From the NCBI RefSeq assembly GCF_004796535.1, contig NZ_SPHY01000003.1, positions 1 through 64,000 of the forward strand: 64,000 bases of DNA. Reading direction: 5' to 3'. The translations under genes and the position numbers were made by a program. Source of the stretch: Sphingomonas flavalba (GTDB taxonomy: Bacteria; Pseudomonadota; Alphaproteobacteria; Sphingomonadales; Sphingomonadaceae). Below, one piece after another: positions 3,810 to 24,060 of this stretch. Numbering within the stretch: the stretch's first letter is position 1; each line of letters begins with the position of its first letter. Below the pieces are notes generated by a model. That model searched no databases. It saw nothing but the letters and a program-made list of their open reading frames with translations, and was not told the origin of the DNA.

Positions 3810-5750
3810 ATGAGTAGCCGTACCGCACCGCCCGCCCCCGCCGCCCCGCTGATCGCCCGCGCCAGGCTGTTCGGCAATCCGAGCCGGGCAATGGGCCGGA
3901 TCAGCCCGGACGGCGTCTGGCTGAGCTGGCTGGCGCCGCGCGACGGGGTGATGAACGTGTGGATCGCGCCCACCGCCGACAGCGCCGCCGCCCGGCCGAT
4001 GACCGCCGAGACGGAGCGGCCGATCGGCGAATATTTTTGGGCACCGGACAGCAGCCGCATCCTGTTCGTGCAGGACAAGGGCGGCGACGAGAATTTCCTG
4101 CTCTACGGCGTCGACGTCGCGACCGGCGCGGAAACCTGCCTGACCCCGTTCGACAACACGCGCGCGATGGTGATCGGCACGTCCCACCGCATCCGCGACC
4201 GCATCCTCGTCGGCCTCAACAACCGCGACGCGCGCTGGCACGACGTACACAGCCTCGACCTGACCACCGGCGCGCTGACCGAGATGCTGCGCGGCGACGG
4301 CTATGCCGGTTTCCTCGCCGACGACAATCTGGACCTGCGGATGGCGTTGCGCCCGAACGCCGCCGGCGGGTTTGATTTCTTCCACATCGTCGACGGCGTC
4401 GTCGCCGAGGATCCGTTCGGCACGACGACGCTGGAGGACGCGCTGACCACCCAGCCGGCCGGCTTCACCGCCGACGGCGCGACCCTCTACTGGCTGGACA
4501 GCCGCGGTCGCGACACCGCCGCGCTGATCGCCCAGGACGTGGCGAGCGGCGCGACGCGGATCGTCGCCGAGGATCCGCGCGCCGACATCGGCGCGGTGAT
4601 GGCGCATCCGGTGACCGGCGTCGTCGACGCCTGGGCCGCCACCTATCTGCGTACCGAATGGACGGCGACGGCGCCGGCGGTCGGCGAATCGCTCGCCTTC
4701 CTGCGCGAGCGGCTGGACGGCGACATAACCGTCACCGCCCGCACCGACGCCGATGACAAGTGGACCGTCGCCGTCGACCCGGTGACCGGGCCGCCCGCCG
4801 TCTATCTCTACGATCGCGCCGCCGGCACGCTCAGCCTGTTCTACGTCAGCCGGCCGGAACTGGCCGACGCGCCGCTGGTCGCGATGCAGGCGCTGGAAAT
4901 CGCCGCCCGCGACGGGCTGACCCTGACCGCCTATCTCAGCCTGCCGCCGGGCAACGACACCGATGGCGACGGCATACCGGACACGCCGATGCCGATGGTG
5001 CTGCTGGTCCATGGCGGACCGTGGGCGCGCGACGGTTACGGCTACAACCCCTACCACCAGTGGCTGGCCAACCGCGGCTATGCGGTGCTGTCGGTTAATT
5101 TTCGCGGCTCGACCGGGTTCGGCAAGGCGTTCATCAGCGCCGGCGACCGGCAATGGGGCCTGAAGATGCACGACGACCTGATCGATGCGGTCGACTGGGC
5201 GGTCGCGCGGGGGATCGCCGCCAAGGACAAGGTGGCGATCATGGGCGGCTCCTATGGCGGCTATGCGACGCTTGCCGGACTGGCCTTCACCCCGACGGTG
5301 TTCGCCTGCGGCGTCGACATCGTCGGCCCGTCCAACCTGGAAACGCTGCTGAAGACGATCCCGCCCTACTGGGCGGCGGGGATCGAGCAGTTCCACCAGC
5401 GCATGGGCAACCCGAACACGCCGGAAGGGCTGGAGGCGCTGAAGCGCGCCTCCCCCCTCTACAGCGCCGAGCGAATCGTCCGCCCGCTGCTGATCGGCCA
5501 GGGCGCCAACGACCCGCGGGTCAACAAGGCGGAATCGGACCAGATCGTCGCGGCGATGCAGGCGAAGGCGATTCCCGTCACCTATGTGTTGTTCCCCGAC
5601 GAAGGGCACGGCTTCCACCGGCCGGAAAACAACATCGCCTTCAACGCGATCGCCGAGGCGTTTCTCGCGCGCTGCCTCGGCGGCCGTGCGGAACCGGAGG
5701 ACGGCGCCATCGCCGCGTCGACCGCGCAGTTCCTGTCCGGGGGCGAATGA
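3810..5750 (+). CDS. S9-family serine peptidase (acylaminoacyl/dipeptidyl peptidase-like)
   Basis: A 646-residue protein with an N-terminal beta-propeller-like region and a C-terminal alpha/beta-hydrolase domain. The nucleophile elbow is GGSYGG (Ser about 481), with the Asp of GANDPRV (about 568) and the His of DEGHGF (about 600) completing the triad. Family members cleave short peptides at their N-terminal side, with the propeller limiting substrate size. No clear signal peptide is visible, so a cytoplasmic location is likely, although some relatives are exported. It starts 51 bp after the cyclophilin gene on the same strand. Confidence 0.9.
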   Translation: MSSRTAPPAPAAPLIARARLFGNPSRAMGRISPDGVWLSWLAPRDGVMNVWIAPTADSAAARPMTAETERPIGEYFWAPDSSRILFVQDKGGDENFLLYGVDVATGAETCLTPFDNTRAMVIGTSHRIRDRILVGLNNRDARWHDVHSLDLTTGALTEMLRGDGYAGFLADDNLDLRMALRPNAAGGFDFFHIVDGVVAEDPFGTTTLEDALTTQPAGFTADGATLYWLDSRGRDTAALIAQDVASGATRIVAEDPRADIGAVMAHPVTGVVDAWAATYLRTEWTATAPAVGESLAFLRERLDGDITVTARTDADDKWTVAVDPVTGPPAVYLYDRAAGTLSLFYVSRPELADAPLVAMQALEIAARDGLTLTAYLSLPPGNDTDGDGIPDTPMPMVLLVHGGPWARDGYGYNPYHQWLANRGYAVLSVNFRGSTGFGKAFISAGDRQWGLKMHDDLIDAVDWAVARGIAAKDKVAIMGGSYGGYATLAGLAFTPTVFACGVDIVGPSNLETLLKTIPPYWAAGIEQFHQRMGNPNTPEGLEALKRASPLYSAERIVRPLLIGQGANDPRVNKAESDQIVAAMQAKAIPVTYVLFPDEGHGFHRPENNIAFNAIAEAFLARCLGGRAEPEDGAIAASTAQFLSGGE

Positions 5751-22255: not shown

Positions 22256-22332
22256 GGCCCCGTAGCTCAACTGGATAGAGCACCTGCCTTCTAAGCAGGA
22301 TGTTGCGTGTTCGAGTCACGCCGGGGTCGCCA
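22256..22332 (+). tRNA. tRNA-Arg (anticodon TCT)
   Basis: A 77-nt cloverleaf with encoded CCA. The acceptor arms GGCCCCG and CGGGGTC pair (one G-U), the D-arm is GCTC...GAGC, and the anticodon stem CCTGC/GCAGG closes the loop CTTCTAA with TCT at 22290-22292. The T-arm holds TTCGAGT. The 3' end (22318-22332) is repeated exactly at 23481-23495, so this gene has acted as an attachment site for an integrated element. Confidence 0.96.
22318..22332 (+). repeat. Attachment-site direct repeat, tRNA side (att core copy 1)
   Basis: ACGCCGGGGTCGCCA, the last 15 bases of the tRNA-Arg gene, recurs perfectly at 23481-23495 in the same orientation. Flanking bases differ on both sides. tRNA 3' ends are the classic target of tyrosine recombinases, and an integrase remnant lies just inside. 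Confidence 0.8.
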
Positions 22333-22392
22333 TATCCTTCACTAATTGATTGTATTTCCTGCATTTTCTTCTAGGTTAGGCAAATTCAGGCC

Positions 22393-22674
22393 TCATCCAC
22401 CTGTTTCCTGATCCGAAAGCCGTTCGACCGCGCGGCGCAGGTCCCCCGCGGCCGGCAGCCACAGATCCGCGCCATTCTTGCTCGCCTGAAAATTGATCTT
22501 GCCGCGCACGACATGCCTTAGGCCGAACAGTCGTGCGTCGCCGCGCCGCTGGCCGGTCCAGCAGGTGATTGCCGGCGCCAACCGCGCTTTTGCGCCGAGC
22601 GGATGGCGCTTTTTATACTGCGCGATCTCCGCCTCGCTCCGGATGTGATGGCCGGATCCGCCGCAGGGCGGCAC
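22393..22674 (-). pseudogene. Tyrosine recombinase (integrase) remnant
   Basis: A 93-residue piece reading EIAQYKKRHPLGAKARLAPA then TGQRRGDARLFGLRHV. This matches the start of the catalytic domain of phage/island integrases, where the first catalytic Arg lies in a TGxRRxD motif. The N-terminal DNA-binding domain and the C-terminal HxxR and Tyr boxes are absent, so it cannot be an active recombinase. It sits 60 bp from the tRNA-Arg 3' end, the usual place for an island integrase. Family assignment is by motif only. Confidence 0.65.
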
Positions 22675-22715
22675 GCAACGGGATGGCGGTCAGCTGCTAG
22701 CAATACGCGGCAATC

Positions 22716-23000
22716 CTAACTCTCGTCATTTGCCCCGTTATTGTCATTTGCCCGCTGGAGCGCTGGTCCTTCCGCCCTGACAAAGGATCGCGCCGGCTCG
22801 GCGCTGCCGTCAGACGTGCGCACAAGCCGGACATCCAGAGAGGTCGATGCACCGGGGCCGTTGCGATATGCGAGGCGGCACATCCTTTCCGCATAATGAT
22901 CGGCAATGTCGAGTAAGGCGCAACGGTCCACATCGCTGTTGGAAGCGGCCGCGCGAGCCCGCGCCGACCGCTCACGTTCGAGCAGTTTATTGATGTCCAT
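22716..23000 (-). CDS. Small protein of unknown function, MDIN-type paralogue 1
   Basis: A 94-residue soluble, charged protein starting MDINKLLERERSARARAAAS. It is a paralogue of the next upstream gene: both open MDINxLLxREx and share a helical pattern with ALLDIADHYAERM versus HLGLAELYAGRV. GGAG lies 8 nt before the ATG at 23000; an earlier start at 23039 is possible. It resembles short sphingomonad proteins of unknown role carried on mobile DNA, but I cannot name a function. Confidence 0.6.
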   Translation of the reverse strand: MDINKLLERERSARARAAASNSDVDRCALLDIADHYAERMCRLAYRNGPGASTSLDVRLVRTSDGSAEPARSFVRAEGPALQRANDNNGANDES

Positions 23001-23062
23001 AAAACGCACTCCGGCGTGGGTCGCGAGATTTGCTCGCATGAACGGACGCGGGGCCGACCGAC

Positions 23063-23302
23063 CTAGGCGCGACCGTAACCATCCCGCGAGCCGGGGACGA
23101 ACAGTGCAATATGTTCACGTGTCAGGGGCGTGCATCCCGCCGCTACCTTATTTGCCGCTTTCAGGCGGCCTGCCAGTTTGCGGACGCGCCCGGCATATAG
23201 CTCGGCAAGCCCAAGATGGGCGTCGCGTGCGGCGCCGTGCCGGGCGTTGGCGGCGCACATTAGGGATACCTGCTCACGTGCGAGCAATTCGTTGATGTCC
23301 AT
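23063..23302 (-). CDS. Small protein of unknown function, MDIN-type paralogue 2
   Basis: A 79-residue protein starting MDINELLAREQVSLMCAANA, related to the gene downstream (same N-terminus and spacing of helices). GGGAGG lies 8 nt before the ATG at 23302; a GTG at 23332 would add ten residues. The two genes lie head-to-tail inside the tRNA-Arg element, probably a tandem duplication. No catalytic motif is visible; a predicted all-helical fold is the only structural clue. Confidence 0.6.
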   Translation of the reverse strand: MDINELLAREQVSLMCAANARHGAARDAHLGLAELYAGRVRKLAGRLKAANKVAAGCTPLTREHIALFVPGSRDGYGRA

Positions 23303-23480
23303 GGCGGGGGCCTCCCGAAGGAGCGAGGGCACAACGTCCCTCAGTCACAAGTTGCTCGGAATGAATCCGGTGATGGCAGCTTGTAGCACGAATCCCTGGA
23401 TTGTCGGCATGAATAACGGAGCCTAGCTTAGTTGGATGCGCGGCAATATACCTCGTTGATATTACATGCCTAATGCACAA

Positions 23481-23495
23481 ACGCCGGGGTCGCCA
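23481..23495 (+). repeat. Attachment-site direct repeat, distal copy (att core copy 2)
   Basis: ACGCCGGGGTCGCCA, identical to the tRNA-Arg 3' end at 22318-22332 and in the same orientation. It marks the far end of the inserted segment and lies 13 bp before the 3' end of the PEP-CTERM gene. Confidence 0.8.
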
Positions 23496-23508: not shown

Positions 23509-24060
23509 CTATGCGCGGGCGGTGCGCGGCTGCCGACGGCTTCGCAAGGCGCCGCCGGCAAGGCCGAAGCCGGCGATCAGCATTGCCCACGCACCCGGTT
23601 CGGGCACGCCCGCATAGGCGTCGATGGTCAGCCGGTAATGGGTGTCGTCCCAGGCCGACAGCGTGATCGCGTGATTGGCGTTGCGGAAATAGGTCGTCTC
23701 CCCCGTATTCTGGTCAACGCGGGTGACCGACGCGTCGCCGAAGTGGAAGGTCTCGTAATATCGGGCTTCGCCGCTGTGCGCGCGATAGTCGTCGAAGAAC
23801 AGGTTATTCCCGCCGATCCACGCGCCGTCGCTGTCGTACATGTCGTACGTGATGTCGTAATAGCCTGAAAGATAGGAGACGAGCGGGCGCTCCAGTTCCA
23901 CCAGCACGACATAGGTCATCATCGGTTGGGCGGCGAACTGGACCAGGCCCGGCCCGGACACGGAAAAATCACCTTCGAGAACATGCCGGGTCACGGTCGC
24001 CGCGTTGACGCTGGTCGCGCATGCAAGCGCACTCGCCAGTCCGAGCCAAGAGAATCGCAT
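23509..24060 (-). CDS. PEPxxWA-CTERM sorting-domain protein
   Basis: A 183-residue exported protein. It has an N-terminal signal peptide (MRFSWLGLASALACATSVNA), a beta-rich middle without recognisable catalytic residues, and the C-terminal VPEPGAWAMLIAGFGLAGGA plus an Arg-rich tail. The tail is the PEP-CTERM sorting signal. The function of the mature domain is unknown; such proteins are anchored or released at the cell surface in exopolysaccharide-producing bacteria. It is the first backbone gene beyond the tRNA-Arg element. Confidence 0.8.
   Translation of the reverse strand: MRFSWLGLASALACATSVNAATVTRHVLEGDFSVSGPGLVQFAAQPMMTYVVLVELERPLVSYLSGYYDITYDMYDSDGAWIGGNNLFFDDYRAHSGEARYYETFHFGDASVTRVDQNTGETTYFRNANHAITLSAWDDTHYRLTIDAYAGVPEPGAWAMLIAGFGLAGGALRSRRQPRTARA

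What the first reader, a model, noticed from the sequence alone, without database searches (positions are those of the whole stretch)
22256..23495. 1.16-kb decayed element in tRNA-Arg with perfect 15-bp att repeats and two paralogous small genes
ACGCCGGGGTCGCCA at the tRNA 3' end is repeated exactly at 23481-23495. Inside are an integrase remnant lacking the catalytic C-terminus and two intact-looking MDIN-type paralogues (94 and 79 aa). Both small genes have good ribosome binding sites, which suggests selection for them after the rest was lost. Function unknown.
Basis: seen in the sequence. Interest (0 to 1): 0.65.

Follow-up and report, generated by a model that had tools for sequence, protein, structure and literature searches.

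The report
Element remnant with leader-RNA-controlled small genes
A worn-out piece of integrated DNA next to a tRNA gene still carries two small protein genes, and the first of them is preceded by a folded control RNA that is absent from Rfam and turns out to sit in front of many small and regulatory genes across the sphingomonad bacteria.

Summary
The tRNA-Arg(TCT), the exact 15-bp direct repeat, the two related MDIN frames and a tyrosine-integrase fragment are all present. The repeat is beyond chance (0 of 1000 shuffles reached 15 bp). The integrase fragment is 50% identical to a 374-aa integrase that abuts a tRNA-Glu 3' end; it lacks its N-terminus and HxxR..Y box. A decayed tRNA-integrated element is well supported, but no empty site could be seen: the genus has one held genome.

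The unexpected part is just upstream of the first small gene (23303-23374, minus strand): a diverged copy (39.7 bits, E about 1e-6) of a structured leader RNA. The class has a covarying hairpin (94% of cells paired in 58 sequences), a loop-to-3' pseudoknot (swap test 0 of 500), conserved CUGAGAGAC and GCUCCC, a -10-like box just before it and a Shine-Dalgarno site directly after. Rfam 15 has no match. It occurs in 91 of 199 genomes of the family, up to 8 copies each, before MDLN/MDIN proteins, Crp/Fnr-type regulators, DUF6894, an alternative oxidase and genes on phage contigs. I infer a translational switch, pseudoknot versus SD sequestration; the trigger is unknown.

The parts
22256..22332 (+). 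tRNA-Arg(TCT), integration target
   Evidence: ARAGORN; Rfam tRNA 67.1 bits
22318..22332 (+). left copy of the 15-bp direct repeat (attL-like), last 15 nt of the tRNA
23481..23495 (+). right copy of the 15-bp direct repeat (attR-like)
22393..22674 (-). tyrosine-integrase remnant: Arg-box region (TGQRRGD) kept, N-terminus and HxxR..Y box lost; reads towards the tRNA 3' end
   Evidence: 50% identity over 80 aa to a 374-aa integrase next to tRNA-Glu; not detected by PF00589 in the own genome; PHROG 7244 only E 0.31
22716..23000 (-). 94-aa MDIN paralogue, degenerate family motif; second gene of the pair (62-nt gap), SD-like GGAG at 23011-23008
   Evidence: (family profile E 1.2e-16)
23063..23302 (-). 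79-aa MDIN protein of the MDLN/MDIN family, predicted helical hairpin (residues 3-55) with a low-confidence tail
   Evidence: profile E 4.5e-22; pLDDT 94-98 for residues 1-40
23303..23374 (-). structured leader RNA of the class modelled as R1
   Evidence: 39.7 bits; E 2.3e-6 for the whole own genome, next best hit 20 bits
23345..23373 (-). hairpin P1 of the leader: arms 23373-23366 and 23352-23345 (6 of 8 pairs formed here)
   Evidence: alignment; sequence
23321..23357 (-). pseudoknot of the leader: loop GAGC (23357-23354) with GCTC (23324-23321)
   Evidence: class-wide swap test; sequence
23325..23342 (-). inner helix GAGGG (23342-23338) with CCCTC (23329-23325)
   Evidence: sequence; class-wide GAG/CTC 98% paired but nearly invariant
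23312..23323 (-). SD-sequestering hairpin CTCC-TTCG-GGAG; uses the same CTC as the pseudoknot, so the two exclude each other
   Evidence: sequence; class-wide SD pairing probability 0.82 vs 0.68 in shuffled leaders
23382..23387 (-). -10-like box GCTACA at the class-wide conserved position (-13 to -8 from the leader's first A)

Best explanation
The 1.16-kb segment is the remnant of a tyrosine-recombinase element that integrated at the 3' end of tRNA-Arg(TCT) and lost most of its genes, the integrase included. What is left intact is a small operon on the minus strand: promoter-like box, 72-nt structured leader RNA, the 79-aa MDIN gene, then the degenerate 94-aa paralogue. Shown by sequence: the repeat, the integrase remnant, family membership of the 79-aa protein, and a leader that belongs to a covarying RNA class found widely in front of sphingomonad genes. 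Inferred: transcription starts at or next to the leader's first base; the leader folds either into a hairpin whose loop pairs with GCUC (pseudoknot), leaving the Shine-Dalgarno free, or into a hairpin in which the same CUCC hides the GGAG; a cellular signal (metabolite, ion, protein, small RNA or temperature) chooses between them and so sets translation of the small proteins. The proteins are probably small helical-hairpin adaptors; their partner is unknown.
For: Repeat beyond chance. The integrase relative reads into a tRNA 3' end, as here. Leader hit at 39.7 bits, next best in the genome 20 bits. P1 covariation: 91% of cells paired over 26 sequences and 94% over 58, with 6-7 of 8 pairs showing two-sided changes and slid controls at about 35-48%. 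Pseudoknot: each loop pairs with its own 3' segment better than with those of other leaders, 12.6 vs 10.0, 0 of 500 swaps, with types GTAAGC/GCTTAC, GCAAGC/GCTTGC, CAGGC/GCCTG, CGAGC/GCTCG. -10-like box at fixed distance in 112 leaders. SD pairing probability 0.82 vs 0.68 in shuffled leaders. Leader plus small genes also occur on phage-like contigs and near integrases.
Against: No empty site seen; the genus holds one genome. The window's copy of the leader is diverged: two P1 mismatches, and its single-strand fold is not more stable than shuffles (z 0.74; pseudoknots are not modelled there). The MDLN family is mostly not near integrases, so the operon could in principle have been resident. No expression data. 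The 94-aa gene has lost key family residues.
Confidence: 0.72

Rival explanations
1. No mobile cargo: the MDIN operon was a resident chromosomal locus next to the tRNA, and an unrelated element inserted and decayed between them; the right-hand repeat is coincidental or a trace of another event.
For: MDLN/MDIN genes are usually chromosomal, often beside csp, infA or rpsL genes and not beside integrases. tRNA genes lie within 3 kb of 8 of 72 such loci.
Against: The operon lies inside the repeats, and a 15-nt exact copy of the tRNA end is beyond chance. None of 13 relatives with tRNA-Arg(TCT) beside the same Vut_1 gene has an MDIN gene or the remnant in the stretch fetched there, up to 8 kb. GC3 of both genes is low for this genome.
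Confidence: 0.2
2. The leader works as a binding site for a protein or a small RNA, or as a thermosensor, rather than as a ligand-sensing riboswitch. The element history is as in the best explanation.
For: Conserved unpaired CUGAGAGAC and a C-rich CUCCC that complements the SD. The downstream genes share no metabolic pathway. A related, mostly leaderless branch of the protein family sits beside cold-shock and translation genes.
Against: A compact pseudoknot with conserved unpaired bases is also what riboswitches look like; nothing here separates the options.
Confidence: 0.6
3. The conserved upstream block acts as DNA (operator or mobile repeat), not as RNA.
For: It is adjacent to a promoter-like box and often present in several copies per genome.
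Against: Hairpin and pseudoknot covary while the sequence is free to change. In nearly all copies read it lies in the sense orientation just before an SD and start codon, and downstream of the inferred transcription start.
Confidence: 0.05
4. The operon is itself decaying and has no function now.
For: Diverged leader, degenerate 94-aa gene, no close relatives to show conservation.
Against: The 79-aa frame keeps the family residues (D2, N4, Q11, LM), and promoter box, leader, SD and start codon are all in register.
Confidence: 0.2

Closest known systems
tRNA-targeting integrative elements / satellite prophages with tyrosine integrases
   Same: Integrase fragment facing the tRNA 3' end; short direct repeat equal to the tRNA end
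   Different: Only 1.16 kb left, integrase broken at both ends, no other mobility gene
Translational riboswitches with pseudoknotted aptamers (SAM-II, preQ1-II and similar; from general knowledge)
   Same: Small hairpin with a loop-to-3' pseudoknot close to an SD that can be hidden
   Different: No Rfam 15 match at gathering score (7 loci) or meaningful match at E up to 10 (window and two leader regions); conserved sequence differs; ligand unknown; downstream genes share no pathway
odc1 motif of alphaproteobacteria (PMC8632094)
   Same: Alphaproteobacterial 5' leader with hairpin and pseudoknot, studied with a Sphingomonas copy
   Different: Its pseudoknot joins the 5' end to the loop, it carries an upstream ORF and precedes ornithine decarboxylase; ours joins the loop to 3' sequence and precedes other genes
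DUF1127 gene with attenuator in Sinorhizobium meliloti (PMC12218461, title and abstract only)
   Same: Short protein gene under leader control in an alphaproteobacterium
   Different: MDLN/MDIN proteins match no Pfam family, DUF1127 included; control here is inferred as translational

Membership tests
tRNA-integrated element (tyrosine recombinase) | Direct repeat of the tRNA 3' end bounding the insert | tested here: met
   15/15 nt, 0 of 1000 resamplings
tRNA-integrated element (tyrosine recombinase) | Integrase gene adjacent to the tRNA | tested here: met
   Remnant only, 60 nt from the tRNA; homologues beside tRNAs
tRNA-integrated element (tyrosine recombinase) | Complete integrase able to excise | tested here: not met
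   N-terminus and HxxR..Y box missing; hence 'remnant', not 'element'
tRNA-integrated element (tyrosine recombinase) | Empty site in a close relative | not testable with these tools
   One genome in the genus
MDLN/MDIN small-protein family (defined here) | N-terminal MD[IL]Nx[LY]xxxxQxxLM, helical hairpin | tested here: met
   79-aa protein: profile E 4.5e-22; AF2 helices 3-19 and 23-55
MDLN/MDIN small-protein family (defined here) | Same motif in the 94-aa paralogue | tested here: inconclusive
   Profile E 1.2e-16, but Q11 and LM lost
Leader RNA class R1 (defined here) | P1 hairpin, CUGAGNGAC, C-run, SD directly downstream | tested here: met
   39.7 bits, 6 of 8 P1 pairs, full-length match 1-75; the window copy is one of the 26 sequences the model was built from
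Leader RNA class R1 (defined here) | Loop-to-3' pseudoknot | tested here: met
   GAGC/GCTC, 4 bp here; class-wide test
Any Rfam 15 family (known riboswitches and leaders) | Covariance-model match | tested here: not met
Riboswitch (ligand-binding) | Direct ligand binding that changes expression | not testable with these tools
   Needs in-line probing and reporters
Known protein families (Pfam, NCBIfam, PHROGs) | Profile match of the MDIN proteins | tested here: not met

The most novel reading that the evidence does not exclude
A previously uncatalogued class of pseudoknotted cis-regulatory RNA, possibly a riboswitch, controls many small-protein and regulator genes across the Sphingomonadales, and is also carried by phages and integrated elements as the control region of small cargo genes. 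The window holds a diverged copy.
Probability: 0.7. Interest if true: 0.85.

Novelty: new variant of a known kind. Interest (0 to 1): 0.68.

Why it matters
A structured leader present in nearly half of the sphingomonad-family genomes sampled, up to eight copies each, and absent from Rfam, points to a shared signal that sets translation of many uncharacterised small proteins, Crp/Fnr-type regulators and an alternative oxidase. It gives a direct handle (one RNA, reporter assays, ligand screens) on a large set of genes of unknown function, and suggests that phages and decayed elements use the same host-type switch for their small cargo genes.

Tried and rejected
MDIN proteins in Pfam, PHROGs and NCBIfam: no match. 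79-aa protein by tblastn in phages and plasmids and in viral contigs: none. Idea that MDLN genes are integrase-linked cargo in general: rejected, no integrase within 4 kb in 72 loci by motif, none by phmmer. Idea that the family is simply part of a cold-shock cluster: 16 of 72 loci have a csp gene within 500 nt, but only 3 of those have the leader, so this is largely a separate branch. Fold search of the AF2 model: no match below E 0.26, generic helical hairpins. Minimum free energy of the window leader: not different from shuffles. Literature: no description of the leader found in eight searches of the open-access library; most subscription papers are not held, so a printed description may exist; the closest found, odc1, differs. 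The covariance model holds no pseudoknot, so pseudoknot support rests on the swap test, whose sequences include relatives.

Full report
Observation. The tRNA-Arg(TCT) lies at 22256-22332. Its last 15 nt, ACGCCGGGGTCGCCA, recur exactly at 23481-23495 and nowhere else in the window. In 1000 order-2 Markov resamplings of the 5 kb downstream, the best copy of the tRNA end was 13 nt. Two minus-strand frames, 23063-23302 (79 aa) and 22716-23000 (94 aa), share their first 46 residues (43% identity, E 6e-7) and match no Pfam, PHROG or NCBIfam family.

The integrase remnant. The frame 22393-22674 matches at 50% over 80 aa a 374-aa integrase in another genome of the family. That integrase ends 12 nt from a tRNA-Glu 3' end, and the other three relatives checked also lie beside a tRNA: Asn, Cys and Arg. 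The remnant keeps the first catalytic box (TGQRRGD), lacks about 180 N-terminal residues and lacks the HGLR..Y region. Its last residues (ERLSDQETGG) resemble the relative's tail (DRLSDADLANR), so the C-terminal loss may be an internal deletion; this is read by eye and was not aligned so by the program. PF00589 finds five other integrases in the genome and not this one. Together these support a decayed tRNA-integrated element. An empty site could not be looked for, because the genus has one held genome.

The protein family. The 79-aa protein found weak relatives in 12 other genomes of 149, always through its first ~40 residues. A profile of that region finds members in 110 of 298 genomes and 50 of 96 genera, one to four per genome. 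The signature is MD[IL]Nx[LY]xxxxQxxLMxA. AlphaFold2 gives two helices (3-19, 23-55) at pLDDT 94-98 over the first 40 residues and a low-confidence tail; the PDB holds no significant match. In 72 loci no integrase lies within 4 kb. One branch lies beside cold-shock protein genes (16 loci within 500 nt, none at 500-1000 nt), infA (15 loci within 1 kb) or rpsL (5 loci within 500 nt), mostly without the leader described next.

The leader RNA. Upstream of many of these genes, and of the window's 79-aa gene, is a conserved block. Aligned over 26 sequences, it has an 8-bp hairpin with 91% of cells paired and 6 of 8 pairs changed on both sides; sliding the partner by 1-3 columns drops the whole structure to 35-44%. 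A covariance model found further copies; in 58 distinct sequences the hairpin is 94% paired with 7 of 8 pairs changed on both sides (this alignment was fitted to the model). The 3' part of the hairpin loop pairs with the segment after GCUCCC: each loop fits its own segment better than those of other leaders (12.6 vs 10.0, 0 of 500 swaps; 0 of 500 also for the 77 non-consensus segments). The inner GAG/CTC helix is nearly invariant and so says little. Upstream, 112 leaders share a [CT]TA-type box around -13 to -8 and TT at -35/-34, which places the likely transcription start at the leader's first base. Predicted SD pairing is 0.82 against 0.68 in shuffled leaders.

Distribution. The leader is in 91 of 199 genomes of the family, up to 8 copies each. 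In an order-wide sample all 34 positive genomes of 147 are of the same family. In a class-wide sample 7 of 190 are positive, five of them outside the family. An exact core pattern in 84,980 species genomes gave 45 stretches, 43 in records named as Sphingomonadales, one Methylobacterium and one unclassified. Rfam 15 has no match at gathering score for seven loci and none meaningful at E up to 10. Genes behind the leader include MDLN/MDIN proteins, cNMP-binding (Crp/Fnr-type) regulators, DUF6894, an alternative oxidase, a response regulator, an Xre/MbcA/ParS antitoxin domain and several unnamed small families. It also lies on contigs with phage tail and lysis genes (L257, L261) and near integrases (L258, L260), as read by eye from the frames.

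The window copy. It scores 39.7 bits, E 2.3e-6 over the whole genome, where the next hit is 20 bits; it was one of the 26 sequences in the model, so the score is somewhat favoured. It has 6 of 8 P1 pairs, GAGGG/CCCTC, a 4-bp pseudoknot GAGC/GCTC, a -10-like GCTACA and an SD GGGAGG 8 nt before the ATG. Its CTCC can pair either with the loop or with the SD across a UUCG loop, which is the proposed switch. Its single-strand fold is no more stable than shuffles. Its nearest protein and leader relative is L037 (58% over 41 aa; leader 48.3 bits), so protein and leader subtype seem to travel together.

Reading. Best supported: an element remnant that keeps a leader-controlled small operon. Shown: repeat, remnant, family, RNA class. 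Inferred: transcription start, switch, retention by selection. Unknown: the signal and the proteins' partner. The RNA class is the more interesting result; that it is a ligand-sensing riboswitch is possible but untested.

Noticed in passing
L051 (G017:C1:1152000-1171000), tRNA at 5058-5134: An identical tRNA-Arg(TCT) in another genus is flanked by a 5' half-copy about 90 nt upstream and a 45-nt 3' copy 10.8 kb downstream, around an element with a different integrase: an element that seems to carry a whole replacement tRNA.
   Followed up: partly
window 22256-22332; L055-L067: The tRNA-Arg(TCT) beside Vut_1 in 13 other genera differs from the window's (GCGCCC.. versus GGCCCC.. acceptor stem), so the tRNA at this place may have been exchanged.
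   Followed up: no
L044, L109, L117, L129, L135, L141, L152, L156 and others: A mostly leaderless branch of the MDLN family lies within 500 nt of cold-shock protein genes, and others by infA or rpsL, hinting at a link to cold shock or translation.
   Followed up: partly
L189, L190, L206: Divergent pairs of the leader precede a Crp/Fnr-type regulator one way and a DUF6894-type gene the other.
   Followed up: no
L256, L257, L259, L261 (IMG/VR contigs): Leader plus small genes on contigs with phage-like genes, i.e. probably carried as cargo by phages.
   Followed up: partly
L227, L265, L266, L267, L269, L270: Rare good copies of the leader outside the Sphingomonadales (Methylobacterium and unnamed alphaproteobacteria), one before a Crp/Fnr-like gene.
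   Followed up: partly
window 23509-24060 (-): A PEPxxWA-CTERM protein gene ends right after the right-hand repeat; no homologue in the syntenic loci fetched.
   Followed up: no
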